Positions 4,276-29,582 of a stretch of 39,455 nucleotides of DNA are shown here, piece by piece. A model generated the notes under the pieces. The model made no database searches, was not told where the DNA came from, and saw only the letters and a program-made list of their open reading frames with translations. The DNA is taken from the NCBI GenBank assembly GCA_021793575.1, contig JAJYSM010000001.1, positions 67,371-106,825 on the forward strand, in the 5' to 3' direction. The translations under genes were made by a program, and so were the position numbers. The DNA comes from Pseudomonadota bacterium (GTDB lineage: Bacteria > Pseudomonadota > Gammaproteobacteria > Xanthomonadales > Rhodanobacteraceae). Positions within the stretch are counted from its first letter, which is position 1; the number at the start of each line of letters is the position of its first letter.

Positions 4276-5208
<933 letters not shown>

Positions 5209-5368: not shown

Positions 5369-6577
5369 ATGCCCGACCAGATGACGCCACTTGCGGTGAC
5401 CGCGTATACCGCCAGCTCCGCCATCGGCCATGGCCTGGCGGCGCAACTCGATGCGCTGCGCCAGGCCCGCAGCGGGCTGCGCCCGAACGACTTCAGCAGC
5501 GCGCCGCTGGCGTGCTGGATCGGCCGCGTGGCGGGGCTGGAGGATGCGCCGCTGCCGCCCGCCCACGCGGCGTGGGAATGCCGCAACAACCGCCTCGCCT
5601 GGCTCGGCCTGAACCAGGACGGTTTTCTCGACCGCGTGCGCGCGGCGCGCGCACGCTACGGCGCCGACCGCGTGGCACTGCTGCTGGGCACCTCCACCGC
5701 CAGCATCGGCGCCACCGAGGCGGCCTATCGCCGGCTCGATGCCGACGGCGGCTTCGCCGACGCCGACCTGCAGATGCCGGCACTGCATGCGCCGCATTCG
5801 CTGGCCGCCTTCGTCGCCGCCGCGCTGACGCTCACCGGCCCGTGCCTGACCGTGTCCACCGCCTGCTCGTCCGGCGCCAAGGTGTTCGCCAGCGCCGAGC
5901 GGATGATCCGGCTGGGGCTGGTGGACGCGGCGGTGGTGGGCGGTGTCGACACGCTGTGCGACAGCGTGCTGTTCGGCTTCAACGCGCTGGAGCTGGTCTC
6001 GGCCGCGCCGTGCCGCCCGTTCGATGCGGCGCGCGACGGCATCTCGATCGGCGAGGCGGCCGGCTTCGCGCTGCTCGAGCGCATCGAAACCGCGCCCGCG
6101 GCGCCGCGCCTGCTCGGTTACGGCGAGGCCAGCGACGCGCATCACATGTCCACCCCGCATCCGCACGGACTGGGCGCCGAGCTGGCGCTGCGCGATGCCC
6201 TGGCGCGCGCCGGCCTCGCGCCGGCGCAGGTCGATTACATCAACCTGCACGGCACCGCCAGCCTGAAGAACGACGAGGTGGAAGCGGCGCTGCTCGCGCG
6301 GATGTTTCCCGCCCGCACGCGAGCCAGCTCGACCAAGGGCTATACCGGCCACACGCTGGGCGCGGCCGGCATCATCGAGGCGGCCATCGCGCTGCAGGCG
6401 ATCGAGCACGGCTTCGTGCCGGGCAACCTCGGCGGCGACACGCCGGACCCGGGCTGCGGTCCGCAGTTTGCCTGGGCCAACGAGCAGCAGCGCGTCGAGG
6501 TGGCGCTGAGCAACTCGTTCGGCTTCGGCGGCAACAACGCCTGCCTCGCGTTTGCCCGCGCCGGGTTCGCCGCATGA
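5369..6577 (+). CDS. beta-ketoacyl-ACP synthase of aryl-polyene type
   Basis: Condensing enzyme (402 residues, FabF-like) expected to extend the polyene on ACP. The catalytic triad can be read: Cys166 in TVSTACSSGA, His294 in INLHGTASLKNDE, His328 in KGYTGHTLGAAG, with Lys323 nearby. Aryl-polyene clusters carry such a synthase (ApeO type) paired with a chain-length-factor-like partner, and here the next gene is exactly that partner. A second in-frame ATG lies four codons downstream (MTPLAVTAY). The gene is the first of a rightward run of four (KS, CLF-like, glycosyltransferase, halogenase) joined by 4-bp overlaps for the first three. KS identity is certain; the assignment to the pigment pathway rests on context. 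Confidence 0.92.
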   Translation: MPDQMTPLAVTAYTASSAIGHGLAAQLDALRQARSGLRPNDFSSAPLACWIGRVAGLEDAPLPPAHAAWECRNNRLAWLGLNQDGFLDRVRAARARYGADRVALLLGTSTASIGATEAAYRRLDADGGFADADLQMPALHAPHSLAAFVAAALTLTGPCLTVSTACSSGAKVFASAERMIRLGLVDAAVVGGVDTLCDSVLFGFNALELVSAAPCRPFDAARDGISIGEAAGFALLERIETAPAAPRLLGYGEASDAHHMSTPHPHGLGAELALRDALARAGLAPAQVDYINLHGTASLKNDEVEAALLARMFPARTRASSTKGYTGHTLGAAGIIEAAIALQAIEHGFVPGNLGGDTPDPGCGPQFAWANEQQRVEVALSNSFGFGGNNACLAFARAGFAA

Positions 6578-7368
6578 CGCCGCTGCAGGTCTACGTCGAG
6601 GGCATCGGCCTGTGGTCGCCGCAGCTGGCCGACTTCGCCGCGCTGCGGATGCTGCTAGATGGCGCCACACCGGCACCGCCGCCGGCGCGGCCGACTGCCA
6701 CCGCGCTGCCGCCGAACGAGCGCCGGCGCGCGCCGGAGAGCGTGCTGCTGGCGGTCGAGGTGGCCGGCCAGGCGGTGGCGATGAGCGGCCGCGATGCCGC
6801 CACGCTGGCCTGCGTGTTCGCCTCCTCGCACGGCGATCAGGCGATCACCGACTACATGTGCGCCACGCTGGCGCAAGCGCCCGCCGAGCTGTCGCCGATC
6901 CGCTTCCACAATTCGGTGCACAACGCGCCGGCCGGCTACTGGACGATCGCCACCGGCTGCCATGCGCCGTCCACCGCGGTGGCGGCACAGCGCGCCAGCT
7001 TCGGCGCCGGGCTGCTGGAGGCGGTCAGCCAGGCGCTGGCAGGGCAGCGCCCGGTGCTGCTGGTGTGCAGCGACAGCGGCGGCAGCGGGCCGCTGGCCGA
7101 AGTCACTGGCTGCGGCCAGTCCTTCGGCTGCGCGCTGGTGCTGGCGCCACAAGCCGGCCCCGCCAGCGTGGCGCGGCTGAGCCTGAGCACGCTGAGCGGC
7201 TACGGCGCCGCCGCCGCGCTGCCCGCGCCGCTGGACGCATGGCGCGACGCGAATGCCTCGGCCAGCGCGCTGGCGCTGCTGCAGCTGCTGGCCCGCGGCC
7301 ACGGCCGCTGCCAGCTGCCCGCCGCCGCCGCACTGGGCCTGGATCTCGGCGTGGAGGCCGTCGCGTGA
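6574..7368 (+). CDS. ketosynthase-like protein (chain-length-factor type, PF13723-like)
   Basis: A short 264-residue ketosynthase-N-domain protein. Its ATG overlaps the stop of the upstream ketosynthase (ATGA), indicating translational coupling and probably a heterodimer, as known for ApeO/ApeC in aryl-polyene synthesis. Family signs are FASSHGDQAITDYMC, SPIRFHNSVHNAPAGYW and TIATGCHAPSTAVAA. It lacks the C-terminal KS half with the two catalytic histidines, so it should not condense by itself. A cysteine (Cys129) sits where a KS nucleophile elbow would be (ATGCHAPSTAV) although the surrounding motif is not that of an active KS. Role in chain-length control is inferred from the family and the position. 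Confidence 0.82.
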   Translation: MTPLQVYVEGIGLWSPQLADFAALRMLLDGATPAPPPARPTATALPPNERRRAPESVLLAVEVAGQAVAMSGRDAATLACVFASSHGDQAITDYMCATLAQAPAELSPIRFHNSVHNAPAGYWTIATGCHAPSTAVAAQRASFGAGLLEAVSQALAGQRPVLLVCSDSGGSGPLAEVTGCGQSFGCALVLAPQAGPASVARLSLSTLSGYGAAAALPAPLDAWRDANASASALALLQLLARGHGRCQLPAAAALGLDLGVEAVA

Positions 7369-8123
7369 ACGCCGCCGTGCCGCGCTGGTGTGTGCTGATT
7401 CCCTGCCTCAACGAGGAGGTGGCGATCGGTGCGCTGCTGGCCTCGGTGCTGGCGCTGGGCGTACCGGTGATCGTGGTCGACGACGGCTCCGATGACCGCA
7501 CGCCGGCGATCGCGGCCGCGCTGCCGGTGACCCTGCTGCGCCACGGCGAGCGGCGCGGCAAGGGCGAGGCGCTGCGCGCAGGCTTTCGCGAGGCGCTGCG
7601 GCAGGGTTACGACGCCGTGCTGACGATGGACGGCGACGGCCAGCACCTGGCCAGCGACATCCCGCGGATCGTGGCGGCGGCCGCAAAATATCCGCAACAC
7701 ATCGTAATCGGTGCTCGCCTGCTGGAACGGGCGCAGCAGCCTAAGGGCCGCCGCCGCGCCAACGCGGTGGCCGACTGGGGCATCTCGTGGGCCTGCGGGC
7801 AGCCGGTGGCCGATACCCAGAGCGGCCAGCGCTGGTATCCACGCGCCGCGCTGGCGCTGGTCGAGCTGCCGGCGGAAAATTTCGTGTTCGAGGCGGCCCT
7901 GCTGATCGCCGCCTCGCGCGAGAAGCACCTTGGCGTGGTCTCGGTGCCGATCGCCTCGCGCTATCACGGCGAGTTCCGGCGCAGCCATTTCCGCCCGATG
8001 GGCGATGTCACCCGCATCACCCTGTACACCATCGGTCGGGTGTTGCATTACGGTGACATCGTGGCCAGCCACCGCCGTTCGCGCGGCGCACCGGTGATCG
8101 TCGACAACGTGCCGGCGGACTGA
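7365..8123 (+). CDS. family 2 glycosyltransferase
   Basis: GT2-family enzyme of 252 residues. The start is a GTG overlapping the previous stop (GTGA). The N-terminal domain is a GT-A fold: IPCLNEEVAIGALL, IVVDDGSDDRT (nucleotide binding), and the DxD-type TMDGDGQHLASDIP. SRYHGEFRRSHFRPMGD follows near the C-terminus. No transmembrane segment is evident, so it should act on the cytoplasmic face. Xanthomonadin and related aryl-polyene clusters often contain a glycosyltransferase; it probably modifies the polyene or its lipid anchor before export. The sugar and acceptor are not readable from the sequence. Confidence 0.85.
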   Translation: MNAAVPRWCVLIPCLNEEVAIGALLASVLALGVPVIVVDDGSDDRTPAIAAALPVTLLRHGERRGKGEALRAGFREALRQGYDAVLTMDGDGQHLASDIPRIVAAAAKYPQHIVIGARLLERAQQPKGRRRANAVADWGISWACGQPVADTQSGQRWYPRAALALVELPAENFVFEAALLIAASREKHLGVVSVPIASRYHGEFRRSHFRPMGDVTRITLYTIGRVLHYGDIVASHRRSRGAPVIVDNVPAD

Positions 8124-8228
8124 GCTTCCCGGCCACCGGCTTCACCCGGCACCGACCTGGCCGTCACCTGCGGCGCAGCAAGCTGGAACGGTGCACAATC
8201 GGTGCCTGAGCGGCGGCGCGGAGCCCCC

Positions 8229-9824
8229 ATGAGCGACACGACGCACGATGCGGTGATCCTCGGTGGCGGGCTGGCCGGACTCTGCCTGGCGCTGCAGCTG
8301 CGCGGCGAGTTTCCGCAGCTGGACATCGTGGTGCTGGAACGGCGCGCGCATCCGCTGCCGCCGGCCGCGCACAAGGTGGGCGAGTCGACGGTGGAGATCG
8401 CCGCGCACTATCTGGCTGACACGCTGGGCCTGCGCGAACACCTGGAAAGCGCGCACATCCGCAAGTTCGGCTTCCGCTTCTTCTTCTCCGACGGCTGCAG
8501 CGACCTGGCTGCGGTGACCGAGCTGGGCGTGAGCCAGGTGCTGCCCACGCCCAGCTACCAGCTCGACCGCGGCATCTTCGAGAACTTCCTCGGCGCCGAG
8601 GCGCGCCGGCGCGGCATTGACTTTCGCGACGGCGTGCGCGTGAACCGCTTCACGCTGGGCCAGCACGGCGCCGCGCACAGCGTGCAGTGCAGCGATGCCG
8701 ACGGCCGCGCGCACACGCTGGGCGCGCGCTGGCTGCTGGACGCCTCCGGCCGCGCCGGCATGCTGCGCCGCCGGCTCGAGCTCACCCGCGACAACGGCCA
8801 CCGCGCCAACGCCGTGTGGTTCCGCCTGGACGACCGCATCGCCATCGATGGCTGGTGCGACGACTCCGACTGGCAGGGCCGCTGCACGCCGCCGGAGCGC
8901 TGGCGCTCGACCAACCACCTGTGCGGGCCGGGCTACTGGGCGTGGCTGATCCCGCTGGCCTCGGGCGCGCACTCGGTGGGCATCGTGGCCGATGCCGGCA
9001 TGCATCCGATCGAGACGATGCACAGCTTCGAACACGCGCAGGCGTGGCTGGGCGTGCATCAACCGGCGCTGGCGCGCGCGGTGGCCGCGCGCCGGCACAC
9101 GCTGCTCGACTTCGCGTTTTTCCGCGACTATTCGTACAGCTGCGCGCGCATGTTCAGCGCCGACCGCTGGGCGCTTACCGGCGAGGCCGGCGCGTTCCTC
9201 GACCCGTTCTACTCGCCCGGCAGCGACTTCATCGCGATCGCCAATACCTACATCTGCCGGCTGGTCGGGCTCGATCTGGGCGGCCGCGCGCTGTCGGCGC
9301 CGGCGCGGCTGTTCGAGCGGCTGTTCTTCTCGTTCTACCGCAGCACGCTGGCGCTGTACCGCGGGCAATACCCGCTGTTCGGCAATGCCGAGGTGCTGCC
9401 GATCAAGGTGATCTGGGACTACGCCTACTACTGGGGCGTGCTGTGCCAGCTGATGTTCCAGCAACGGCTGGACGACGCCGCGCTGTTCGCTGACCTGGCG
9501 CCGGAACTTGAACTGGCGCAGGCGCTGAACCAGCGCATGCAGCCGTTCTTCCTGCGCTGGCACGCGCTGTCGCACGGGCGCAATCCGCGCGCGATGCTGG
9601 ATCAGCGCGAGCTGCCGTGGTTCGCCCGCATGAACGCCACCCTGCACGACGCGCTCGACGACGCCGCGCTGCGCGCGCGCCTGCGCGAGAACGTGGCGCT
9701 GCTGGAAGGACTGGCCGCCACCATCGTGGAGCGCGCGGTGGCCGACGGCGGCGGCGCGCTGCGCGGCGAGATGCATGACCTGGCCCGCGCGCGGCAGCGA
9801 CCGGTGCTGTTCGCGGCGGCCTGA
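8229..9824 (+). CDS. flavin-dependent halogenase (tryptophan-halogenase superfamily)
   Basis: FAD-dependent enzyme of 531 residues with the full halogenase signature. The dinucleotide-binding GxGxxG is at 12-17 (GGGLAG), HKVGEST at 48-54 is the conserved GES region, Lys79 in HIRKFGFRFFF is a good candidate for the catalytic lysine that forms the haloamine or guides HOX, WAWLIP at 237-242 matches WxWxIP, and FLDPFYSPG at 323-331 matches FxxPxxSxG. The last two motifs separate halogenases from related monooxygenases. In xanthomonadins the aryl polyene is brominated, so this gene is the likely halogenating step. It needs a separate flavin reductase, not seen here. It follows the glycosyltransferase after 105 bp and ends 18 bp before the convergent ketoreductase stop. 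Confidence 0.88.
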   Translation: MSDTTHDAVILGGGLAGLCLALQLRGEFPQLDIVVLERRAHPLPPAAHKVGESTVEIAAHYLADTLGLREHLESAHIRKFGFRFFFSDGCSDLAAVTELGVSQVLPTPSYQLDRGIFENFLGAEARRRGIDFRDGVRVNRFTLGQHGAAHSVQCSDADGRAHTLGARWLLDASGRAGMLRRRLELTRDNGHRANAVWFRLDDRIAIDGWCDDSDWQGRCTPPERWRSTNHLCGPGYWAWLIPLASGAHSVGIVADAGMHPIETMHSFEHAQAWLGVHQPALARAVAARRHTLLDFAFFRDYSYSCARMFSADRWALTGEAGAFLDPFYSPGSDFIAIANTYICRLVGLDLGGRALSAPARLFERLFFSFYRSTLALYRGQYPLFGNAEVLPIKVIWDYAYYWGVLCQLMFQQRLDDAALFADLAPELELAQALNQRMQPFFLRWHALSHGRNPRAMLDQRELPWFARMNATLHDALDDAALRARLRENVALLEGLAATIVERAVADGGGALRGEMHDLARARQRPVLFAAA

Positions 9825-9842
9825 TCGCCGCGGGCGTGGTGC

Positions 9843-10580
9843 TCAGCCCATGCCGCCGTTGACGCCGATCACCTGGCCATTGATGTAGCCGGCCAGGTCC
9901 GAGCACAGGAACGCCACCAGCGCGGCGACTTCCTCGGGCCGGCCGGCGCGCTGCGCGGGCACCAGTTCGCGCAGGCGCTCCGGCGGAAAATCCGTGCCGA
10001 TCATGCGGCCCTCGATCACCCCGGGCGCCACCACATTGACGGTGACCCCGCGCGAGGCCATCTCGCGCGCCAGCGATTTGGTGGCGCCGTGCAGCGCGGC
10101 CTTCGCCGCCGCGTAGTTGGTCTGGCCGCGATTGCCCAGCTGCGCCGCCGCCGAGCTCAGCGACACGATGCGGCCGAAGCGCGCGCGCGCCATCGGCAGC
10201 AACAGCGGCTGGGTGACGTGGAAAAAACCGTGCAGCGAGACGTCGATCACCCGATACCACTGTTCGGCGGTCATGCCGGCCATCGGCGCGTCGTCGTGGA
10301 TGCCGGCATTGTTGACCAGCGCGTGGATGGTGCCCTCGGCCAGCAGCGCATCCAGCGCGGCGCGCGTCACGCCGGCATCGGTGAGGTCGAACGCGATCGG
10401 CTGCGCGCTGCCGCCGCCGGCCACGATGCCGGCCGCCACCGCCTCGGCCCGGTGCAGGCCCTGATGCGCGTGCACGATGACGTGCCAGCCGGCGGCGGCC
10501 AGCGCCTGGCAGATCGCGCTGCCGATCTCGCCGCTGCCACCGGTGACCAGCGCGCGACGCAAGGGTGGAGTTGCAGACAT
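9843..10580 (-). CDS. 3-oxoacyl-ACP reductase (FabG-like)
   Basis: Short-chain dehydrogenase of 245 residues that should reduce the 3-keto group after each condensation (ApeQ role). Cofactor site TGGSGEIG at 13-20, NNAG at 90-93, catalytic Ser143 in VSLSSAAAQLG, Tyr156 and Lys160 in NYAAAK, and the C-terminal GQVIGVNGGMG typical of FabG. The start ATG at 10580 has a good Shine-Dalgarno (AGGTGA, 8 bases upstream). It is the last gene of the leftward arm and begins 5 bp after the stop of the dehydratase gene, so it is likely in one transcript with it. Confidence 0.92.
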   Translation of the reverse strand: MSATPPLRRALVTGGSGEIGSAICQALAAAGWHVIVHAHQGLHRAEAVAAGIVAGGGSAQPIAFDLTDAGVTRAALDALLAEGTIHALVNNAGIHDDAPMAGMTAEQWYRVIDVSLHGFFHVTQPLLLPMARARFGRIVSLSSAAAQLGNRGQTNYAAAKAALHGATKSLAREMASRGVTVNVVAPGVIEGRMIGTDFPPERLRELVPAQRAGRPEEVAALVAFLCSDLAGYINGQVIGVNGGMG

Positions 10581-10585
10581 GGCCG

Positions 10586-11059
10586 TCACCTGCTCTCGGG
10601 ATGGGTTGGGAATGTGTCGGATGCCGTGACGTCGGGATGGATCACCGCCGCCCGTCCGCTGGCCAGCAGCACGCCGCGGTGCTCGACGCGGAAGCCATAC
10701 TGCGCACCGCCGCCGTCGGCATACAGGCATTCGGCACGGACGTCCAGATGGCCAATCAGCTGATCGACGTATTCGATGCCGAACTGCACGTCGCGCAGGC
10801 TGACCAGCCGGCCCGGCCGCACCGTGGTGATGCCGCCGGCGCGCGCCAGCAGCGCGCCGTGCACCGCCATCGCCTGCGCGCCGTATTCGGCCAGATGCAC
10901 CGCATGCAGGCCCGATGCGCCGCGCAGCGGATGGTCCGCACGGGCGTGGCCGGCGCTGATCGCGTGGATCGTGCGCGCATCCCACGCCAGCACGGCGTCC
11001 AGCAGGCACATCGTGCCCGCGTGCGGAATCAGCGGCGCCCAGTCAGTCTTCGGCAGCAT
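10586..11059 (-). CDS. 3-hydroxyacyl-ACP dehydratase, ApeP-like hotdog protein
   Basis: A 157-residue single-hotdog dehydratase. The N-terminus WAPLIPHAGTMCLLDAVLAWD carries the PHxGxMxLLD pattern of the FabA-like ApeP family, and GLHAVHLAEYGAQAMAVHGAL contains the expected acidic residue in the central helix. It would remove water from the 3-hydroxyacyl chain to build the conjugated double bonds. The ATG overlaps the end of the exporter gene by 17 bp, so translation is probably coupled. This cluster has a second dehydratase as the C-terminal domain of the protein at 14930-15964, as in other aryl-polyene clusters (ApeI plus ApeP). Confidence 0.85.
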   Translation of the reverse strand: MLPKTDWAPLIPHAGTMCLLDAVLAWDARTIHAISAGHARADHPLRGASGLHAVHLAEYGAQAMAVHGALLARAGGITTVRPGRLVSLRDVQFGIEYVDQLIGHLDVRAECLYADGGGAQYGFRVEHRGVLLASGRAAVIHPDVTASDTFPTHPESR

Positions 11060-13367
11060 GCGGGTGCGGCGCCATCAGGATCGACAGGCAGAAGTGGAAC
11101 GCCACGCCGAGGCTCACCGTGAGTCCGATCGCGCGCAGCACCGGGATGGTCGCCCACGCCAGCATGCCGAACACCAGCAGCGCCGACAGCACGCACACGA
11201 GGGTGGCATGCAGGGTGCGCCGCTGCTCGGCCGGATCGCCGGTGTCGCGCTCGAAGAACAGCGCGTAGTGCAGCCCGAGGCCGCCGGCGAGGATCAGCGC
11301 GACCAGGTGGAACAGCGAGATCTCGATGCCCATCGCGCGCTCCACCGCCAGCACCAGGAACGTCGCCAGGGTCATCGGCGCCAGCACGTGCCAGGCGCGG
11401 CGCAGGCTGCGCAGGGCGAACGTGATGGTCAGCACCAGCAGCAGCGAGGCAACCCCCAGCGCCTGCAGGATGCGCGTGCGATAGGCGGCCACCAGCGATT
11501 CGGAGGCGGCCTTCAGGTCGAGCAGCCGCACCTTGCCGCCGCTGCCTTTGCCCAGCGCCTGCAGCGCGGCCACGTCGTGCACGCCGCTGACCGTGCCCAG
11601 GCCGAACCAATGGCCGTCGCGCTGCATAAGCATCGCCGCCAGCCGCTGGCCCAGCGGCGTCTGCGCGTAATGCTCGGGCGTCAACGGCGGCAGCGTGCGC
11701 GCGGCCTGCACGTCGTCGAGAAACGGCTGGAACAGGCCGGGCCGGAACGGCAGCCCCTGCAGCGCCTGCGCCAGCGCGTGCTGCAGGGTGGCGCGATCGG
11801 GCAGCTTCTGCTGGCGCGCGCGCTGCACGGCCACGCTGGGCAGGTAGCGTGACGGCAGCTCCAGCGCATCGGCCGCATGCCGCGCCAGCAGCGCGTCGAC
11901 CTGCGGCTGCAGCTTTTCGGACAGCGCCAGCACGCCCTGCTCGGTCGCGGCCTGCAGCACCAGCAGATAGCGCACGTCGGGCGCGCCCAGCGCCTCGCGC
12001 AGGCGCGCGTCGCGCAGCAGCATCGCCTGCGGCAGCGGCGTCAGCGCGGCCAGGTTGTTCTGCCAGAACGGGCCGGGCGCCAGCGCCAGCATCGCCACGA
12101 TCGCCAGCGCCACCAGCAGCGGAATCCAGCGCGGCCGCGGCAGCTGGTCCACCCAGTCGCGCGTGCGCTGCAGCCAGCGCATGTCGGCCACGTCGCGCAC
12201 TCGCCGCGGCAGCAGGTGCGGCAGCAGATAGCGCGTGCTGAAGCCGGCCACCAGCAGGCCGACGATGGTGAACACCGCCAGCTGCTGCAGTCCGTTCACG
12301 CCGGACGCATAGAAGGCCAGATACGCGATGCAGGCCGAGGCGATCGCGGTGAGCAGCAGCGGCCACAGTGCGCGCACGCTTTGCACGGCATCCTCGCCGG
12401 CGCGGCGATGGCTGAGCACGCGGATCGGGTATTCCTGCGCCACCCCGAGCAGGGTGAAGCCGAACGCCAGGGTGATCCCGTGCACCGCCGGAAACGCCAC
12501 GATCAGCGCCGCGATGCCGGCCAGCGCCGCGCTGGCGATCGGCAGCGAGCCGAGCAGCAGCGAGCTGACGCTGCGATAGGCCAGCAGCAGCAGCGCGATG
12601 AAGCCGACGGTGGAGATGCGCCCGATCCATTCCGCCTGGTGCCGCGTCTGCGCACCCACCACCACGCTGAAATAGCCCGGGCCGCTCAGTTCCAGCGTCG
12701 CGCCGGCGCTGCCGGGCAGCGCATGAAACGCCTGCCGGATGCCGTCGATGGCGCGCTGCTGGGCGTCCGGATCGAAGCCGGCGGCGACCGTCTGCACCAG
12801 CAGCAGCGCCTCGTGCCGCGGCGAAAACCACACGCCGTCGCGCAGCTCGGGCGCCCTCGCAGGCGCCCAGCGCTCGGCCAGCTTCAGCACTTCCAGGGTG
12901 GGATCGCGCGGCAGCAGGCCCTGCAGCAGACTGGCGGCCGGCGAGGACAGATCGTCCAGCCGCTGCTGCAGCTGAGCGGACAGGTACGCCGCGTCCAGCG
13001 GCTGCGTGTCCAGCGTGGGCGACAGCAGGTAGCGGTACGGCAGCAGCTGCGGGTCGAGCGCGCCGAGATCGAAGCTGCCGTTGAGCACCTGGCTGTAGCG
13101 CGGGTCATGCTTCAGTGCGGCCACCAGGCCCTGGCTCAGCGCCGCCAGCTGCGTGTCCGGTCTTCCACGGATCGCCAGCAGCAGCAGGCGCGAGCCCGGC
13201 CCGTCGCCGACCTGCTCCATCAGCAGGCGCTGGTCGGGCGTGGTCGGCGCCGGCATGAAGCTGCGCAGGTCGGTGCTGACCCGCAGCCGCTGGCTGACCA
13301 CCCAGCCCAGCCCGGCCAGCGCCAGCAGCCAGAGCAGCAGCAGCGTCGCCCGCCCGCCTGTGCGCAT
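11043..13367 (-). CDS. MMPL/RND-family exporter
   Basis: Inner-membrane transporter of 774 residues. It has the RND/MMPL layout: one transmembrane helix at the N-terminus (LLLLWLLALAGLGWVVSQRL), a periplasmic loop, five or so helices (for example WIGRISTVGFIALLLLAYRSV to ASACIAYLAFYASGV), then a second half with the same plan ending in ILAGGLGLHYALFFERDTGDPAEQRR and a last helix set. Aryl-polyene and xanthomonadin clusters always include such an exporter, thought to move the polyene lipid across or out of the inner membrane. The ATG at 13367 is chosen; a GTG seven codons upstream is possible but lies inside the LolA-like gene. It starts 2 bp after that gene's stop. Confidence 0.9.
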   Translation of the reverse strand: MRTGGRATLLLLWLLALAGLGWVVSQRLRVSTDLRSFMPAPTTPDQRLLMEQVGDGPGSRLLLLAIRGRPDTQLAALSQGLVAALKHDPRYSQVLNGSFDLGALDPQLLPYRYLLSPTLDTQPLDAAYLSAQLQQRLDDLSSPAASLLQGLLPRDPTLEVLKLAERWAPARAPELRDGVWFSPRHEALLLVQTVAAGFDPDAQQRAIDGIRQAFHALPGSAGATLELSGPGYFSVVVGAQTRHQAEWIGRISTVGFIALLLLAYRSVSSLLLGSLPIASAALAGIAALIVAFPAVHGITLAFGFTLLGVAQEYPIRVLSHRRAGEDAVQSVRALWPLLLTAIASACIAYLAFYASGVNGLQQLAVFTIVGLLVAGFSTRYLLPHLLPRRVRDVADMRWLQRTRDWVDQLPRPRWIPLLVALAIVAMLALAPGPFWQNNLAALTPLPQAMLLRDARLREALGAPDVRYLLVLQAATEQGVLALSEKLQPQVDALLARHAADALELPSRYLPSVAVQRARQQKLPDRATLQHALAQALQGLPFRPGLFQPFLDDVQAARTLPPLTPEHYAQTPLGQRLAAMLMQRDGHWFGLGTVSGVHDVAALQALGKGSGGKVRLLDLKAASESLVAAYRTRILQALGVASLLLVLTITFALRSLRRAWHVLAPMTLATFLVLAVERAMGIEISLFHLVALILAGGLGLHYALFFERDTGDPAEQRRTLHATLVCVLSALLVFGMLAWATIPVLRAIGLTVSLGVAFHFCLSILMAPHPHAAED

Positions 13368-13369
13368 GC

Positions 13370-14050
13370 TCAGGGCGCGCTCCGGCACAGCGCCTGCAGC
13401 GCCTCGCGCGTGGGTGCGGCCGGCATCTGCGCGGCCAGCGGGCCGAGCAGATCCACCGCCAGATCGCCGTCGGCGTCCTGCATGCGCATGCAGCGCGACT
13501 GCTTGCCGTAGCCGTCGATGGCGATGCTGGCGACGGTGCGGGCCACCTTCGCATCGCGCGGCACCAGCGTCAGCGTCCAGCCGGCGGCGGCGCTGCCGCT
13601 ATGGCGTATCTCGAACGCCTGCTGCAGCCGCCCGGCGTCGCCGCTGAGCAGCGCCACGAAACTCTCCAGCAGCACTTGCAGCTGCGGCGCATGGCCGAGC
13701 GAGAAGCGCCGCGCTGGCTTGCCCGCGCGCTGCAGGGTCACCTCGCCGTCGGCGATGGTGGCGGTTTCGGGCTGCGGCTGCTCGACCTGCCGCTGCAGCC
13801 GGTTGCCGCCCAGCCACGCCAGCTCGCCGGAGACCACCAGCGGCCGGTCCAGCACGTGCAGGAAACGCGCCTCGGCGAATGCGGTGCGCGCCGGCGCCGG
13901 CTGGCCGAGCGCCGCGATCAGGCGGGTCGCCGATGACGACGACGCTGCCGGCGCCGTGCCGGCGAGCGCCACATCAGACGCCCACGCGCTCGACCACAGC
14001 AGCAGCGTCGTGCCCAGCAGGAGCGCGCAGATCTTGCTGCCAGAAATCAT
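13370..14050 (-). CDS. LolA-like outer-membrane lipoprotein carrier protein
   Basis: Predicted periplasmic protein of 226 residues with a signal peptide (MISGSKICALLLGTTLLLWSSAWAS). The mature region resembles the LolA fold as found in aryl-polyene clusters: ARFLHVLDRPLVVSGELAWLGGNRLQRQVEQPQPETATI, DGEVTLQRAGKPARRFSL, and WTLTLVPRDAKVARTVASIAIDGYG. It probably carries the polyene lipid through the periplasm to the outer membrane rather than lipoproteins in general. The start is taken at MISGSK because it begins the signal peptide; a start 12 codons upstream is possible. The gene overlaps the end of the acyltransferase gene by 77 bp. Confidence 0.78.
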   Translation of the reverse strand: MISGSKICALLLGTTLLLWSSAWASDVALAGTAPAASSSSATRLIAALGQPAPARTAFAEARFLHVLDRPLVVSGELAWLGGNRLQRQVEQPQPETATIADGEVTLQRAGKPARRFSLGHAPQLQVLLESFVALLSGDAGRLQQAFEIRHSGSAAAGWTLTLVPRDAKVARTVASIAIDGYGKQSRCMRMQDADGDLAVDLLGPLAAQMPAAPTREALQALCRSAP

Positions 14051-14933
14051 AGAAGTTGAACCAGTTGTAGGGGGCGACGCGGACATAGTGTTCCAGACGT
14101 TGCGCGTAGCGGGCGATCAGCGCGTCCAGCGCCGGACCGCGATTGTGCCGCGGGATCTCCACCCGGTCGGCCAGCGGCTCGAAGATCAGGCGGTAGCGGT
14201 TGCCGCCCAGATACAGGCCGAAACACAGTACCACCGGCACCTTCAGCGTATGCGCCAGCAGCCACGGGCTGATCGGGAACGGCGCCGGCGAACCGAGGAA
14301 CAGCGCATGCCGCAGCACCTCGTGGCCGCGACCGCGATCGGCCAGCATCGCCACCACCGCGCCGCGCTGGCAGGCCTCGGCCATCGCCAGCGCAATCGAG
14401 GTGCCGTCCTGCGCCGCGTCGATCACGCCGGCGCCGACCTCGGGCGCCAGCGCTTCCAGCAGCTCGGTCAGCGCGGGAGTCTTCTGCTTGTCCAGCACCA
14501 CCCGCAGCGGCATCTGCGGGCGTCGCGCGCCGATCGTGCGCAAGGCCTCGAAACTGCCCTGATGCGAACCCAGCAACAGCACGCCGCAGCCCAGCGCGAT
14601 GCGCTCGTCGAGCAGCTCCAGCCCCTGCGTCTCGATCCGGAACGGCCGCTCGCCCTGCGCCAGTAGAAACACCCGGTCCATCGTGATGGCGGCGAAGCAG
14701 TGCAGATGGTGGAACACCTGCCAGGGCGTCGGCGGCCGGCCGAAGACCCGCTGCAGATACTGGCGCGAGGCGACCCGCTCCGGCCGGCGGCGCAGGTAGA
14801 AATACAGCGTGATCGGATACAGGCACAGTCGCCCCAGCCGTCGTCCGCCGCGCAGCGCGATGGTGCGGATCAACCACAGCGCGAAGCGGCCACCGCCCTC
14901 GGGCCGGCTCTGCCAGTGCTCCGGCGCGCTCAT
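13974..14933 (-). CDS. LpxL/HtrB-like acyltransferase
   Basis: Membrane-associated acyltransferase of 319 residues of the lipid A acyltransferase family. The HX4E catalytic motif is His124-Glu129 in LLGSHQGSFEALR, followed by MPLRVVLDKQKTP, VVAMLADRG, and FPISPWLLAHTLKVPVVLCF, all in the family order. In aryl-polyene clusters this enzyme class is thought to attach the polyene to a glycerophospholipid-type anchor. Its ATG overlaps the stop of the upstream dehydratase fusion by 4 bp (ATGA). The C-terminal 26 codons overlap the LolA-like gene. Lipid A itself is a less likely substrate given the context. Confidence 0.88.
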   Translation of the reverse strand: MSAPEHWQSRPEGGGRFALWLIRTIALRGGRRLGRLCLYPITLYFYLRRRPERVASRQYLQRVFGRPPTPWQVFHHLHCFAAITMDRVFLLAQGERPFRIETQGLELLDERIALGCGVLLLGSHQGSFEALRTIGARRPQMPLRVVLDKQKTPALTELLEALAPEVGAGVIDAAQDGTSIALAMAEACQRGAVVAMLADRGRGHEVLRHALFLGSPAPFPISPWLLAHTLKVPVVLCFGLYLGGNRYRLIFEPLADRVEIPRHNRGPALDALIARYAQRLEHYVRVAPYNWFNFYDFWQQDLRAPAGHDAAAVVERVGV

Positions 14934-15964
14934 GCCACCGCCTCGACCTGGCCGCGCGCCAGCACGCTGCCGTCCCGCACGATCTCGAAGCGCAGTCGCG
15001 TCGGGGACTGGGGCAGTTGCTCCGATGGCCCGATGCTGCTCAAGCGCAGCAGCGCGCGCTGCGCCGGCAGCAGCGGCTGCATGAACTTGGCCTCCAGCAC
15101 CCGCGTCAGCCGCTGACCGCGCCACCCACGCAGCGCCAGCGCCACCTGCTCCAGCAGAATCACCCCGGGCACCAGCGGCTGACCCGGGAAATGGCCCGCC
15201 AGCGACGGATGATCCGCCGCGATGCACAGCGCCTGCTCGAACGCGTGCGCGGTCATGACGCGGCCGCGCAGCAGACGCGGCCAGTGCAGCGCCAGCTGCA
15301 GCAGCATGGTGTGCAGGGCGGGATGGCTCAGGTGCCGCAGCCGCCAGCGGCGGTAGACGTATTCCAGCAGGAACACCGCGCCGAGCAGCAGGTAGCCGCC
15401 CGCGTGCAGCCACGCCGCCGCCCAGCGATCGGGCACCGCCAGCGGCGCGACGATGCCGAGGCGGGCCAGCAGGCCATCGTGCGCGGCGCACAGCAGCAGC
15501 ACGGCCAGCAGCAGCGCCTGCGCCGCCAGCAACAGCGTCCAGAACACCGTCAGCTGGCGGGCGTAGCGCGCCACCCCGGGCTGCGCCAGCCGCTCGGCGC
15601 CCTCGATGGCGAGGATGAAACGGGCCACCAGCGGTTCGGGCGTCCACAGCGTGCGGCCGAAGCCCCACGCCAGCAGCGCATTCACCAGCAGCGGCACCAG
15701 CTCCAGCAGCAGCGCAGCCCAGCCCGCCAGTGCCAGCAGCGGCAGCGCCAGCAGTGCGCCCAGCCACAGCAGCCACGGCCCGGGCTGGCCGCGACGCAGC
15801 TGCGGCAGCAGCAGGGCCGTGAGCAGAAGCAGCAGCGCGGCGAGCGGAAAAATCTGCCGCTGGGTGAGCGCGCCCATCACCGCCAGCAGTGGATAGGCAA
15901 CCAGCAGCGCCAGCTGCCAGCGCCGGGTCGAGCTTTCGATCATGGTCGTACGGCCAGCCGTCAT
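14930..15964 (-). CDS. fusion: membrane protein (COG4648-like) plus ApeI-like dehydratase
   Basis: A 344-residue two-domain protein. Residues 1 to about 215 form a hydrophobic domain with several helices (WQLALLVAYPLLAVMGAL, IFPLAALLLLLTALLLP, WLLWLGALLALPLLALAGWAALL) and the segment NALLAWGFGRTLWTPEPLVARFILAIEG, which resembles the uncharacterised membrane proteins of aryl-polyene clusters. The C-terminal 120 residues are a hotdog domain with LAGHFPGQPLVPGVILLEQ around residues 250-273, the FabZ/ApeI active-site pattern (HFPxxPxxPGV). In other clusters I recall these two parts as separate genes. The start is placed at MTAGRTT with GGAA upstream; MIESS (15943) and a longer start at 16021 are alternatives. 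Confidence 0.8.
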   Translation of the reverse strand: MTAGRTTMIESSTRRWQLALLVAYPLLAVMGALTQRQIFPLAALLLLLTALLLPQLRRGQPGPWLLWLGALLALPLLALAGWAALLLELVPLLVNALLAWGFGRTLWTPEPLVARFILAIEGAERLAQPGVARYARQLTVFWTLLLAAQALLLAVLLLCAAHDGLLARLGIVAPLAVPDRWAAAWLHAGGYLLLGAVFLLEYVYRRWRLRHLSHPALHTMLLQLALHWPRLLRGRVMTAHAFEQALCIAADHPSLAGHFPGQPLVPGVILLEQVALALRGWRGQRLTRVLEAKFMQPLLPAQRALLRLSSIGPSEQLPQSPTRLRFEIVRDGSVLARGQVEAVA

Positions 15965-16063
15965 GCCGGATTCCGCGCAGGCGTCGGGGAGATCACCAGA
16001 CTGCCACTTGTGCCGGAACATGGCGTGACGGCAACGGCGCCAAGGGGCATCGGACGGCCGCGC

Positions 16064-16333
16064 TCAGCCGACGCGGTGCTGCTCGATATGCGCCGAGAGG
16101 GTGCCCAGGCTGGTGAAGATCTGCCGGTTGTCCGGATTGTCCGAGCGCAGCTGGAAACCGTAGCGCTTGGACACGGCCAGCGCGATCTCCAGCGCGTCGA
16201 TGGAATCGAGCCCCAGCTCGCCGCCAAACAGCGGCGCATCGGCGTCGATCTGCGCCGGGGTGACCGCTTCGAGGTTCAGGCATTCCACGATCAACGTGGC
16301 CAATTCGTGCTGCGCCGTGGTCTGCTCTGCCAT
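16064..16333 (-). CDS. acyl carrier protein of the polyene cluster
   Basis: A small ACP of 89 residues. The phosphopantetheine attachment serine is Ser44 in ELGLDSIDALEIALAV, the classic GxDS(I/L) site, with surrounding acidic helix II. FTSLGTLSAHIEQH is the last helix. It probably carries the aryl starter and the growing polyene. The first leftward gene of the arm, it is separated by 99 bp from the next gene. The start is taken at MAEQTT; an in-frame ATG four codons upstream (MESSMAEQ, 16345) with AAGGG close by is equally possible. Confidence 0.9.
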   Translation of the reverse strand: MAEQTTAQHELATLIVECLNLEAVTPAQIDADAPLFGGELGLDSIDALEIALAVSKRYGFQLRSDNPDNRQIFTSLGTLSAHIEQHRVG

Positions 16334-16425
16334 GCTCGATTCCATGCCCTTGCTGCATTGCCTCCCCCGGGTGGCAGTGGCCGCGGAGTGTAACATAGCC
16401 CCTTGGTCGCCCCCGGTTGCACGCA
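16334..16425. promoter_or_regulatory. divergent ACP / xanB2 intergenic region
   Basis: The two outward-facing starts are only about 90 bp apart, so the two promoters must overlap or lie inside neighbouring coding sequence. The AT-rich core TGTAACATAG (16389-16398) offers TAACAT as a plus-strand -10 or TATGTT as a minus-strand -10. Neither has a good -35 at the right spacing, so this is only a candidate. The arrangement suggests joint control of starter supply and chain assembly. Confidence 0.3.
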
Positions 16426-17418
16426 ATGATTCACGGATGTGAAAGCCCGCAGACTGATTCGCTGGCGCGCCGCGCGCCGCAGGTCTCCTACCGGCTCGCC
16501 GAGCCCGCCGCCGTGCTGCAGGAAGCCGGCATCCTGGCCGCGTTCGGCTTCGGCGCCGGCGCGGCGCGACTCGACGATCCGCGCTGGCTGCGGGTCGCGC
16601 TGGAAGCGCTCGATGCGCCCACGCCGCTGGAGCTGTGGCAGGTCGACGCCGACGTTCGCTGCGGCCGCGACGGCGCGTTGCGCTGGTCCGCCGGCGGCGG
16701 CTGGCTGTTCGCCGCGATCGAGCTGGACGAACGCGCGCACGGCGGCCCGCGCGCCACCGCGCAGCTGGCCTACGGGCAGCTGCACCAATTCGTGACGGCG
16801 CACAGCGCGCACCACGTGCTGCGCGTGTGGAACTACCTCGGCATGATCAACCACGGCGAGGGCGACGAGGAGCACTACAAGCAATTCTGCGATGGCCGCG
16901 CCGCCGGCATGGGCCGCTTTTTTGCTGACGGTTTTCCTGCCGCCAGCGCGATCGGCCATCACGCCGACGGCGAGCCGCTGCAGGTCTATCTGCTGGCCTG
17001 CGACCAGCCCGGCCGCCGGGTGGAAAACCCGCGCCAGGTCAGCGCCTGGCGCTACCCGCGCCAGTACGGCCGCACGCCGCCCAGCTTTGCCCGCGCCATG
17101 AGCCTGCCGGCGCACGATGCGCTGGCGATCTCCGGCACCGCCGCGGTGGTCGGCCATGCCTCCGCCCATCATCACGATCTCGATGCGCAGCTGGAGGAAA
17201 CCCTGACCAACCTCGAAGCCCTGCTGGCCAGCGCCGGCATCGCCGCCGGCTTCGATACGCAGTCGCCGCTCAAGGCCTACGTGCGTCACCCCACCGACGC
17301 CGCGCGCGTGCGCGCCTTCCTGCGTCAGCGCCTGCCCGGCGTGCCGGTACTGCTGCTGCACGGCGACATCTGCCGCAGCGAGCTGCTGGTGGAGATTGAT
17401 GGATGGCGGTATGCGTGA
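16426..17418 (+). CDS. xanB2: XanB2-like chorismatase (3-/4-hydroxybenzoate synthase)
   Basis: FkbO/Hyg5/XanB2-family chorismate lyase-hydrolase, 330 residues. In Xanthomonas XanB2 splits chorismate to 3- and 4-hydroxybenzoate, the first being the xanthomonadin starter and the second a ubiquinone precursor. Family landmarks are VLRVWNYLGMINHGEG, EEHYKQFCDGRAAGM, RQYGRTPPSFARAM, LAISGTAAVVGHASAHH, and the C-terminal HGDICRSELLVEIDGWRY. The last contains Glu in LVEIDG and a cysteine (residue 316) at the place where, as I recall, Hyg5-type enzymes have an active-site Cys. It is divergent from the ACP gene, which fits starter supply for this cluster. The ATG at 16426 lacks a strong Shine-Dalgarno; a TTG three codons upstream is possible. 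Confidence 0.9.
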   Translation: MIHGCESPQTDSLARRAPQVSYRLAEPAAVLQEAGILAAFGFGAGAARLDDPRWLRVALEALDAPTPLELWQVDADVRCGRDGALRWSAGGGWLFAAIELDERAHGGPRATAQLAYGQLHQFVTAHSAHHVLRVWNYLGMINHGEGDEEHYKQFCDGRAAGMGRFFADGFPAASAIGHHADGEPLQVYLLACDQPGRRVENPRQVSAWRYPRQYGRTPPSFARAMSLPAHDALAISGTAAVVGHASAHHHDLDAQLEETLTNLEALLASAGIAAGFDTQSPLKAYVRHPTDAARVRAFLRQRLPGVPVLLLHGDICRSELLVEIDGWRYA

Positions 17419-17613: not shown

Positions 17614-20475
17614 ATGCGATTGCTTACCTACGCTGGCCTCGACCCGGGCCGTCTGCGCGCGGCCTTCGAGAAAGTGCGCGCGGCAATCGAACGCGATGAC
17701 CTGCGTAGCGCGGACGTCAAGAAATTGCAGGCGGCGCCTTACTACCGCGCCAAGCTTGACGGGGCCAGCCGGTTGTTGCTGACCTTCGTGCGTCATCGCG
17801 ACGAGACCGTCTGCCTGGCGCTGGAGATCATCGCTCAGCACGCTTACGACCACTCGCGCTTCCTGCGCGGCGCGCGCATCGACCCCGCGCGCATCGGCGA
17901 GGCCACGGCGGACGCGATCGCCCAGGACGCCACGCCGGTGCGCTACCTGCATCCGGGCCGCAGCGAATTCCACCTGCTCGACAAGCCCATCTCGTTCGAC
18001 GACGCCCAGAATGCGGTGTACCAGCGGCAGGCGCCGCTGATCCTGGTCGGTTCGGCTGGCTCAGGCAAAACCGCACTGACCCTGGAGAAGCTGCGGCACG
18101 CCGAGGGCAGCGTACTGTACGTCACCCAGTCGCCGTGGCTGGCGCGGAGCGCACGCGACCTCTACTTCGCAAATCACTACGAGAATTCGGCGCAGGAGCC
18201 GCAGTTCTTGTCGTGGCGCGAGTTCCTGGAAAGTCTGCAGGTGCTTCCGGGTCAAGAGGTCGACTTTGCGGCGTTCCGCGATTGGTTCGTGCGCCATCGC
18301 CAGCACTATCGCTACACCGACGCGCACCAGTGCTTCGAGGAATTTCGAGGTGTGATCGGCAGCCAGCCCGAGGGCGCGCTCACGCAAGAGGCCTACCTCG
18401 CGCTCGGGCCGCGGCAGTCGATCTTCGCGAGCGGGCAGCGCGGCGCGATCCACCAGCTGTTTGACAAGTACCGTGAGTGGCTAGCCGACAGCGGCCTGTA
18501 CGACAACAACCTGATCGCCCACGCCTGGCAGGCGCTGGCTGCGCCGCGCCACGATTTCGTCGTGATCGATGAGGTGCAGGACTTCACCAACGCCCAGCTC
18601 GCGCTGGTGCTGCGCACGCTGCGCAAGCCAGGCCATTTTCTGCTGTGCGGCGATTCCAACCAGATCGTGCACCCGAACTTCTTCGCGTGGTCGTCGGTGA
18701 AAAGTCTGTTCTGGCGCGACCCGGCGCTTGCCGAGCGGCAGCAGCTGTCGGTGCTCGGGGTCAACTACCGCAACGCGCGCGCGGTCACGCAAGTGGCCAA
18801 CGACCTGCTGAGGATCAAGCACGCGCGCTTCGGCTCGATCGACCGCGAGAGCAACCATCTGGTCGAACCGGCGTCCACACTCGACGGCGAGGTGCGGCTG
18901 CTGGCCGATACCGAGGCGGTCCGTCGCGACATCGACGCGCGCACGCGCGGTTCGACCCAGTACGCGGTGCTGGTGCTGCGTGACGAGGATAAGCCGGCCG
19001 CGCGCGCGTGCTTCCGCACGCCGCTGGTGTTTTCGGTACACGAGGCCAAGGGTCTGGAATACCCGAACATCGTCCTATACAGCTTCGTGTCCGGGCAGCA
19101 CCAGGCTTACGCCGAAGTCTGCGCGGGCGTCGACGCGGCCGACCTCGCGGTCGATTCGCTCGATTACCGGCGCGCGAAGGACAAGCAGGACAAGTCGCTC
19201 GAAATCTGGAAGTTCTACGTCAATGCGTTGTACGTCGCGCTCACACGCGCGGTCGAGCGGGTCTGGATGATCGAGAGCAACACCGCGCACCCGCTGCTGG
19301 CGTTGCTCGGCATCCGCGACAGCCCGGCGGCGCTCGGCGTGCCGGCGAAGGCATCGAGCCGCGAGGAATGGGAGCGCGAGGCACACCGGCTCGAACTCCA
19401 GGGCAAGCAGGAGCAGGCCGAGGCGATCCGGCAGACTGTCTTGCGCACGCGCCAGGTGCCGTGGTTGGTGTGGAACGAAGCGACGATCGCGCCGGCGATC
19501 GGGCGCGCGCTCGACCCGAAGGAGGTGTCTAACAAGCTGCGTCAGCAGGTGCTCGACTTCGCGCTGTGGCACCACCAGGAGCGTTATCTGGTACGCATGG
19601 CGCAGGAAGCGCGGTGGAACACTGCAGTCGATCTGGTCAAGCACGCGCCCGAGGGCCGCGTGCAGCGTACGGCCGCCGCCATCGCCGAACGGCAGCTCGC
19701 GCCATGGACGAAGAAAGCGTTCAAGGAGGTTCTCGCACTGTGCGACCAGTACGGTGTCGACCATCGCAGTGCGTTCGATGCGACGCCGCTGATGATGGCC
19801 GCGCACGCCGGCAACCTTCTCTTGGTTGAGGCCTTGCTGCAGCGCGGCGCCGATATCGAGGCGCGCGATCTGTTCGGGCAGACGCCGGTGATGCATGCGC
19901 TTGAGCGCGCCGCGCTGCACGTCGACTATGCGGCCGGTCCGTTCGCAGCGGTGTACGAGCGCGTTGCGCCGGCAGCGCTGGATGTGGAGGCGGACGGCCG
20001 TCTGATCCGCCTGTACCCGCACCAGGGAGAGTATTTCGTGCTGCTGACGATGCTCGCCGGGATCAAGACCCTGGGCTCGCAACTGGTGCCGGGGCGGGCC
20101 TGCTCGCTGGACCGGCGCTCGGGCTTCAACACGGCCTGGTTGATGCGCCATGTCGAGCATTTTCCGATCAGCGTGCTGCGTGAAGAGCGGCGCAAGCGCA
20201 CCTGGTTCAACGCGGTCCTCGCGCGCGCCGAAGTCGATAGCAGCTATGAACCAGCACGCCGACTATGGATGCGCTGGCGTAATGGCTACTACGTGCCGAA
20301 TCCGACGATGCGCCTGCGCGTGCGCGGCGCTAATGGGCAGGAAGAATGGCAGCCCGTGCACGCGGCGATGGCCGTGCGTCGGGTTCTCGCGGGAAGCGGC
20401 TATGGCGCTACCAGGACCGCACTCGAGGGTCTGTTGCCACAGTCGGAACGCGAGGCTGCGGCCACGCCGTTTTGA
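17614..20475 (+). CDS. UvrD-like SF1 helicase with RelE-like N-terminus and ankyrin repeats
   Basis: A 953-residue protein. Residues 1-90 (RSADVKKLQAAPYYRAKL, SRLLLTFVRHRDETVCLALEIIAQHAYDHSRFL) resemble a RelE/ParE-type toxin fold; this is a pattern-level guess. From about 130 to 560 all superfamily 1 helicase motifs are present: Walker A GSAGSGKT 146-153, DEVQD 319-323, CGDSNQ 345-350, NYRN 384-387, VHEAKGLEYPNIVL 475-488 and VALTR 541-545. Around 720-762 there is at least one good ankyrin pair (ATPLMMAAHAGNLLLVEALLQRGADIEARD, FGQTPVMHAL). The C-terminal 170 residues are unassigned. It stands alone between xanB2 and hipBA, and its GC content is slightly lower than the neighbours. Function unknown; DNA or RNA metabolism or phage defence is possible. 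Confidence 0.8.
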   Translation: MRLLTYAGLDPGRLRAAFEKVRAAIERDDLRSADVKKLQAAPYYRAKLDGASRLLLTFVRHRDETVCLALEIIAQHAYDHSRFLRGARIDPARIGEATADAIAQDATPVRYLHPGRSEFHLLDKPISFDDAQNAVYQRQAPLILVGSAGSGKTALTLEKLRHAEGSVLYVTQSPWLARSARDLYFANHYENSAQEPQFLSWREFLESLQVLPGQEVDFAAFRDWFVRHRQHYRYTDAHQCFEEFRGVIGSQPEGALTQEAYLALGPRQSIFASGQRGAIHQLFDKYREWLADSGLYDNNLIAHAWQALAAPRHDFVVIDEVQDFTNAQLALVLRTLRKPGHFLLCGDSNQIVHPNFFAWSSVKSLFWRDPALAERQQLSVLGVNYRNARAVTQVANDLLRIKHARFGSIDRESNHLVEPASTLDGEVRLLADTEAVRRDIDARTRGSTQYAVLVLRDEDKPAARACFRTPLVFSVHEAKGLEYPNIVLYSFVSGQHQAYAEVCAGVDAADLAVDSLDYRRAKDKQDKSLEIWKFYVNALYVALTRAVERVWMIESNTAHPLLALLGIRDSPAALGVPAKASSREEWEREAHRLELQGKQEQAEAIRQTVLRTRQVPWLVWNEATIAPAIGRALDPKEVSNKLRQQVLDFALWHHQERYLVRMAQEARWNTAVDLVKHAPEGRVQRTAAAIAERQLAPWTKKAFKEVLALCDQYGVDHRSAFDATPLMMAAHAGNLLLVEALLQRGADIEARDLFGQTPVMHALERAALHVDYAAGPFAAVYERVAPAALDVEADGRLIRLYPHQGEYFVLLTMLAGIKTLGSQLVPGRACSLDRRSGFNTAWLMRHVEHFPISVLREERRKRTWFNAVLARAEVDSSYEPARRLWMRWRNGYYVPNPTMRLRVRGANGQEEWQPVHAAMAVRRVLAGSGYGATRTALEGLLPQSEREAAATPF

Positions 20476-25336: not shown

Positions 25337-25429
25337 GGTGGGTTACTCGTCACGTTCGCAGGAACCGATGGGGTGCTGAAAAGCCGGCTTGGATCGCTGT
25401 GCTGCCGCCAGCTTGCCGGTGTCTATGCG

Positions 25430-26907
<1,478 letters not shown>

Positions 26908-26916
26908 TTATTGAGA

Positions 26917-27866: not shown

Positions 27867-27891
27867 CTTTTATCGCTCGCTATGCTCGCTC

Positions 27892-27981: not shown

Positions 27982-27988
27982 CTTCTTC

Positions 27989-29539
<1,551 letters not shown>

Positions 29540-29582
29540 GGTGTTTATCCCGAAATTTTAGAATCGAAGCTCTTTCCCAGAG

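What the first reader, a model, noticed from the sequence alone, without database searches (positions are those of the whole stretch)
5369..17418. Aryl-polyene cluster with a motif-complete halogenase and its own XanB2
The cluster contains KS, CLF-like protein, two dehydratases, KR, ACP, acyltransferase, LolA-like carrier and MMPL exporter, plus a flavin-dependent halogenase with both WxWxIP and FxxPxxSxG and a divergent xanB2. This predicts a halogenated xanthomonadin-like pigment made from 3-hydroxybenzoate. The two arms converge at 9.83 kb instead of forming one operon. I see no acyl-ACP ligase, second ACP or thioesterase here, so the route from hydroxybenzoate to ACP must be coded elsewhere or be different.
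Basis: partly seen in the sequence, partly recalled or inferred. Interest (0 to 1): 0.7.

Follow-up and report, generated by a model that had tools for sequence, protein, structure and literature searches.

The report
Xanthomonadin-type pigment cluster with halogenase
This is a yellow-pigment (xanthomonadin-type) gene cluster of a Rhodanobacter-like bacterium, laid out as in many of its relatives; a ligase gene that the pathway needs lies elsewhere on the same contig, and its probable halogenase gene is one that related strains exchange or lack.

Summary
In detail: 5369-17418 encodes a xanthomonadin-type aryl-polyene set in two convergent arms plus a divergent XanB2. The layout is not unusual: 23 of 80 halogenase-anchored relatives show the same pattern. 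One ACP and no assigned thioesterase also describe the published Lysobacter cluster. The flavin enzyme (HAL1) groups with flavin-dependent halogenases by profile and fold. It is not XanB1, the second halogenase-like enzyme beside XanB2 in Xanthomonas; this genome lacks XanB1. Of 151 genomes of the order, HAL1 is in 36 of 51 with the cluster marker and 0 of 100 others. Three of five sampled genomes of the genus lack it, and its tree rejects one Rhodanobacter clade, whereas the KS tree keeps them together: an exchangeable tailoring gene. XanB2 probably also supplies ubiquinone's 4-hydroxybenzoate, as UbiC is absent. A halogenated, perhaps monobrominated, pigment is a fair but untested prediction. 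New member of a known kind.

The parts
5369..6577 (+). ketosynthase (KS, Lysobacter ORF17-like, 402 aa)
   Evidence: Pfam ketoacyl-synt N and C over cut-off; NCBIfam NF006618 504 bits over cut-off 407
6574..7368 (+). CLF-like half ketosynthase (Lysobacter ORF16-like, 264 aa)
   Evidence: Pfam Ketoacyl-synt_2 96.7 bits; best PDB match 6qsp_B, E 8.4e-9
7365..8123 (+). GT2 family glycosyltransferase (position of Lysobacter ORF15)
   Evidence: Pfam Glycos_transf_2 85 bits
8229..9824 (+). HAL1: flavin-dependent halogenase homologue, 531 aa, with GGGLAG, K79, WAWLIP, FLDPFYSPG
   Evidence: Pfam Trp_halogenase 58 bits over cut-off 21; K79 and motif core residues invariant in 29 aligned sequences; profile and fold matches to halogenases
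9843..10580 (-). 3-oxoacyl-ACP reductase (KR, FabG-like, 245 aa)
   Evidence: NCBIfam NF004200 322 bits over cut-off 273
10586..11059 (-). small dehydratase-like protein (157 aa)
   Evidence: homologous and co-located in relatives; no Pfam match and no meaningful PDB match, name inferred
11043..13388 (-). MMPL-type exporter
   Evidence: Pfam MMPL 37 bits over cut-off 20.5
13370..14086 (-). LolA-like periplasmic carrier
   Evidence: Pfam LolA_3 128 bits; the start may be 14050
13974..14933 (-). lipid A-type acyltransferase (319 aa)
   Evidence: Pfam Lip_A_acyltrans 39.6 bits over cut-off 22.3
14930..16021 (-). membrane protein with a C-terminal FabZ-like dehydratase
   Evidence: FabZ-like matches in residues ~240-328, below the curated cut-offs; homologous parts are separate genes in G157
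16064..16333 (-). acyl carrier protein (89 aa)
   Evidence: NCBIfam NF006617 134 bits over cut-off 70
16426..17418 (+). XanB2-type chorismatase (330 aa)
   Evidence: Pfam FkbO_Hyg5-like_N 116 bits over cut-off 27; best PDB match 5ag3, E 1.8e-40, CRS motif shared
4276..5178 (-). hemF, neighbour of the cluster (not part of the pathway)
   Evidence: Pfam Coprogen_oxidas 443 bits; upstream of the cluster in 27 of 80 relatives' loci

Best explanation
A xanthomonadin-type aryl-polyene pathway whose product carries halogen. XanB2 turns chorismate into 3-hydroxybenzoate (and probably 4-hydroxybenzoate for ubiquinone). An AMP ligase coded 66 kb away (C29:5482-6942) activates it and loads it on the ACP. 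KS/CLF-like, KR and the two dehydratases extend it to a polyene. The GT2, acyltransferase, LolA and MMPL proteins attach it to a lipid and move it to the outer membrane. HAL1, an accessory FADH2-dependent halogenase, adds one halogen (most likely Br) to the aryl or aryl-proximal part, with flavin reduced by an enzyme coded elsewhere. Shown here: gene content, arrangement, conservation, the ligase's place, HAL1's nearest families and its tie to the cluster. Inferred: every catalytic step, the halogen and its position.
Confidence: 0.7

Rival explanations
1. HAL1 is a halogenase-like flavoprotein that does not halogenate: it hydroxylates or otherwise oxidises the aryl ring or polyene end, and the pigment is halogen-free.
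For: Halogenase motifs do not prove activity; 3nix, an uncharacterised flavoprotein, is the best Foldseek match; NCBIfam's best model for HAL1 is the halogenase CmlS, but it is far below its cut-off (75.7 against 900) and is followed by geranylgeranyl reductase, LodB and monooxygenase QhpG models, also below cut-off; Azoarcus case; brominated lineages have another candidate enzyme.
Against: PDB profile hits are halogenases apart from 3nix; Lys79 and WxWxIP core invariant in 29 sequences; halogenase-free L. enzymogenes is non-brominated.
Confidence: 0.22
2. The cluster is silent or incomplete in this organism, so no aryl polyene is made.
For: No thioesterase, second ACP or methyltransferase among the cluster genes scanned; nothing known on expression.
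Against: The reading frames of the cluster are intact; the same arrangement recurs in relatives; the Lysobacter cluster, with an unassigned thioesterase and methyltransferase, makes pigment.
Confidence: 0.08

Closest known systems
Xanthomonadin (pig) cluster of Xanthomonas, as described in PMC3838355 (passages)
   Different: Window has no XanB1 (second halogenase-like enzyme beside XanB2) and no ligase in the cluster; only 18 bases separate the two arms (about 1.9 kb with another ORF in G157); membrane protein and dehydratase in one frame
Lysobacter enzymogenes OH11 yellow pigment cluster (PMC3691225, passages)
   Same: KS plus CLF-like half-KS, ORF15 (dolichyl-phosphate-mannose-synthase-like), ACP, KR, two dehydratases, acyltransferase, LolA-like carrier, exporters; pteridine-dioxygenase-like ORF5, a name also given to XanB2 in PMC3838355
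   Different: No halogenase there, pigment without bromine
Azoarcus sp. BH72 arcuflavin clusters (PMC3949708, passages)
   Same: XanB2-type chorismatase, AMP ligase ArcT active on 3-hydroxybenzoate in vitro, halogenase-annotated arcA, pathway split over two loci
   Different: Dialkylresorcinol hybrid; halogenase gene next to xanB2; methyltransferase present
Rhodanobacter sp. ANJX3, Dyella and Luteibacter loci (L009, L012, L014 and others); in-silico xanthomonadin clusters reported for Luteibacter (PMC9965599, PMC11165876, passages)
   Same: gpmA-hemF-[KS CLF GT2 HAL1> <... ACP] XanB2>
   Different: A sodium/proton exchanger gene lies between GT2 and HAL1 in four of six loci inspected (L014, L022, L027, L028), none in the window

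Membership tests
Xanthomonadin-type aryl-polyene cluster | KS paired with CLF-like half ketosynthase | tested here: met
Xanthomonadin-type aryl-polyene cluster | ACP, KR, acyltransferase, LolA-like carrier and MMPL exporter in the cluster | tested here: met
Xanthomonadin-type aryl-polyene cluster | two dehydratases | tested here: inconclusive
   one FabZ-like match below cut-off; the other named only from position and homologues
Xanthomonadin-type aryl-polyene cluster | XanB2-type chorismatase | tested here: met
   the NCBIfam chorismatase model scores 184 bits, below its cut-off of 325
Xanthomonadin-type aryl-polyene cluster | AMP ligase for the hydroxybenzoate starter | tested here: met
   in the genome, 66 kb from the cluster; homologous to ligases inside other clusters; substrate not tested
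Xanthomonadin-type aryl-polyene cluster | aryl-polyene product | not testable with these tools
   needs chemistry
Flavin-dependent halogenase | GxGxxG, WxWxIP, FxxPxxSxG and active-site Lys (list of motifs recalled) | tested here: met
   Lys79 aligned with a lysine of CndH (3e1t)
Flavin-dependent halogenase | nearest characterised relatives are halogenases | tested here: met
Flavin-dependent halogenase | halogenating activity | not testable with these tools
   needs assay
XanB1-type enzyme (HAL2) | orthology to the enzyme beside XanB2 in the Xanthomonas-type cluster of G157 | tested here: not met
   HAL1 is about 29% identical to it, and the own genome has no match to it at E<=1e-60

The most novel reading that the evidence does not exclude
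Aryl-polyene clusters use separate halogenase families, HAL1 (KS side) and XanB1/HAL2 (XanB2 side), each adding one halogen at its own position. Gain, loss and exchange of these genes sets the number of halogens (0, 1 or 2) while the polyene machinery is inherited vertically. The window, with HAL1 alone, would then make a monohalogenated xanthomonadin.
Probability: 0.3. Interest if true: 0.55.

Novelty: new member of a known kind. Interest (0 to 1): 0.35.

Why it matters
The cluster itself is ordinary. Three points add something. The starter-unit ligase has a recurrent place away from the cluster, beside tsaC, in 12 of the 16 relatives tested, which explains its seeming absence here. HAL1 is a separate family of halogenase-like enzymes found only together with the aryl-polyene marker in the sample, and I saw no test of its function. 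Related Rhodanobacter with and without HAL1 in an otherwise similar cluster give a natural test of what the halogen does in these light-protecting pigments and of which enzyme places which bromine.

Tried and rejected
Monooxygenase instead of halogenase: judged less likely from profile and fold, kept as a rival. Layout as a novelty: rejected. 'Ligase missing or a different route': rejected; the gene is the weakest of 7 AMP-binding matches in the genome and was recognised by its homologues near pigment genes elsewhere. HAL1 and HAL2 as replacements for one another: in the window's genus sample they exclude each other in 5 of 5 genomes (own and G146 HAL1; G121, G131, G161 HAL2), but over the 51 marker genomes there is no such trend (19 both, 17 HAL1 only, 6 HAL2 only, 9 neither; Fisher p 0.54). 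Four weak CLF matches (43-52 bits: G049, G063, G076, G137) of the 55 were dropped from the 51 and count among the 100 others. I made no genome search for a thioesterase, second ACP, methyltransferase or flavin reductase. The primary paper on the X. oryzae locus (PMC135150) is not held. Paper searches on xanthomonadin/aryl polyene with halogenase, bromination, related genera, 3-hydroxybenzoate and xanB1: in these listings and in the passages read I saw no test of HAL1, but most subscription papers are not held. An error of mine: the acyltransferase query and protein 7 was translated in a wrong frame, so those LPLAT results are meaningless; redone. G157 and G117 are called Xanthomonas-like only from gene order (read in full in G157). 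Change on checking: confidence of the main reading 0.72 to 0.70 and of the no-halogenation rival 0.20 to 0.22, because the brominated lineages also carry a second candidate enzyme.
Full report
What is there. The window is the last 39,455 bases of contig C29 of a 3.2 Mb, 123-contig genome. The + arm encodes KS (5369-6577), a CLF-like half ketosynthase (6574-7368), a GT2 glycosyltransferase (7365-8123) and a 531-aa flavin enzyme, HAL1 (8229-9824). The - arm encodes KR, a small dehydratase-like protein, MMPL exporter, LolA-like carrier, lipid A-type acyltransferase, a membrane protein with a FabZ-like C-terminus, and one ACP (9843-16333). XanB2 (16426-17418, +) diverges from the ACP gene. The two dehydratase names are the weakest.

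Is the layout unusual? No. One search found 392 stretches encoding relatives of HAL1 in named genomes and kept the best 80. Of these 80 loci, 69 have KS and CLF upstream on the same strand; 32 of these also have at least four of the seven convergent-arm genes on the other strand; and 23 meet all of: KS, CLF and GT2 upstream, four or more convergent genes, XanB2 downstream on the + strand. Two of the 23 (L027, L042) have an extra halogenase-like gene before XanB2. Several loci are cut by contig ends and the Variovorax-type loci show only KS, CLF and HAL1, so 23 of 80 is not a rate. hemF lies upstream in 27 of 80, as in the window. Two Luteibacter papers report xanthomonadin-like clusters from genome annotation (PMC9965599, PMC11165876, passages).

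The missing ligase. An AMP-binding search of the own genome gave 7 matches; the weakest lies on the same contig, in a 487-aa gene at C29:5482-6942 between purD and tsaC-topA, 65.8 kb from the first cluster gene. Each of 16 named genomes tested has one match at E<=1e-20. In 12 of the 16 it lies beside tsaC (11 of these with topA and 9 with purD inside the short stretch fetched). In the other four (Alkalisalibacterium, Lysobacter sp. CAU 1642, Peristeroidobacter, Variovorax; 44-58% identity) it lies near pigment genes. In the order sample it occurs in 51 of 51 genomes with the CLF marker and in 2 of 100 others. Azoarcus ArcT, the published homologue of the Xanthomonas ligase, activates 3-hydroxybenzoate in vitro (PMC3949708, passages). 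That the window's ligase does so is inferred. One ACP and an unassigned thioesterase are also what the Lysobacter paper describes (PMC3691225, passages), so they need no special route.

More than one halogenase-like family. PMC3838355 (passages) describes the same two in Xanthomonas: a halogenase, and XanB1, 'putative reductase/halogenase', next to XanB2. As a single sequence HAL2 matches known halogenases much better than HAL1 does (best about 195 against 61 bits). Steroidobacter-type clusters have HAL1 plus a third kind, about 32% identical to HAL2. 13 of the 14 second- or third-kind enzymes in my loci carry both motifs, so motif completeness does not tell which enzyme does what. The window's genome has HAL1 only. 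Of 151 genomes of the order, 51 have the CLF-like marker at 97 bits or more (55 at the looser cut-off; four weaker ones dropped). HAL1 is in 36 of the 51 and 0 of 100 others, HAL2 in 25 of 51 and 0 of 100; both in 19, HAL1 only 17, HAL2 only 6, neither 9. Both are tied to the cluster but optional, which fits tailoring enzymes.

An exchangeable gene. In the window's genus sample (5 genomes), own and G146 have HAL1; G121, G131 and G161 lack it and carry HAL2 away from the cluster. The clusters of G131 and G161 otherwise show the same genes; that of G121 was read only to the contig end, inside MMPL. The distance between the matched ends of GT2 and KR is 22 bases in G121, 626 in G131 and 1,292 in G161, without a HAL1 match. 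The HAL1 tree puts R. glycinis and two others with Oleiagrimonas (support 99/97); the window with ANJX3 and A1T4 (81/77) and T12-5 and Root480 beside Dyella (89/91) are less firm. Holding the eight Rhodanobacter rows together is rejected (p-AU 3.0e-5; the group is the NCBI genus plus the window, tested after the tree was seen). The KS tree keeps 11 Rhodanobacter rows together at 93/94, just below the starred level. A sodium/proton exchanger gene sits between GT2 and HAL1 in four of six loci inspected, and the Azoarcus cluster lists one too.

XanB2. Its best PDB match is 5ag3 (Hyg5, as I recall), E 1.8e-40; it shares the CRS motif of 5ag3, where FkbO (4bps) has ARE. That this cysteine marks 3-hydroxybenzoate formers is recalled, and the Azoarcus paper warns that sequence alone does not predict the product. 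At E<=1e-20 XanB2-like genes occur in 51 of 51 marker genomes and in 64 of the other 100, more widely than the pigment genes. UbiC (PF04345) has no match in the own genome; it is over its cut-off in 5 of 151, of which 1 also has XanB2 (Fisher p 0.012), and a sixth match, below cut-off, is in a genome with XanB2. UbiA is present in the own genome. As reported for Xanthomonas (cited in PMC3949708, passages), XanB2 probably supplies both 3-hydroxybenzoate for pigment and 4-hydroxybenzoate for ubiquinone; deleting it would not be a clean pigment knock-out.

Does the pigment carry halogen? Some lineages point that way: Xanthomonas pigments carry 0-2 Br and L. enzymogenes, without a halogenase gene, none; Steroidobacter cummioxidans 35Y makes a dibrominated pigment, although its own genome was not in my set. 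Against this, these brominated lineages have a second candidate enzyme, and the Azoarcus cluster has a halogenase-annotated gene beside xanB2 while the passages I saw on its pigment (m/z 608.4) mention no halogen. I give about 0.7 to the reading that HAL1 halogenates the pigment and 0.3 to the bolder one that HAL1 and XanB1 each add one halogen.

Verdict. A real, apparently complete, conserved xanthomonadin-type cluster, a new member of a known kind. The interesting remainder is HAL1 as an untested, exchangeable halogenase-family gene and the recurrent off-cluster place of the ligase.

Noticed in passing
window 17614-20475 (+): Large SF1/UvrD-like helicase with ankyrin repeats just past XanB2; weak GajB- and DRT-helicase-like matches in the defence library only.
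   Followed up: partly
window 21028-22562 (-): HipA-like kinase (HipA_C 147 bits) preceded by a 104-aa helix-turn-helix protein (HTH_3 26.7 bits): looks like a HipBA-type toxin-antitoxin pair.
   Followed up: partly
window 23135-32215 (-): F-type ATP synthase genes with a GlmU-like gene (23135-24508) beside them, ordinary housekeeping.
   Followed up: no
L014, L022, L027, L028 between GT2 and HAL1: A sodium/proton exchanger gene (Pfam Na_H_Exchanger, 178-190 bits) lies inside the aryl-polyene cluster next to HAL1; the Azoarcus cluster lists one too (arcG). Its role in pigment making is unclear.
   Followed up: partly
window 34126-36396 and 37987-39213 (-): GH3 glycosidase and a TonB-dependent-receptor barrel ORF near the contig end.
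   Followed up: no
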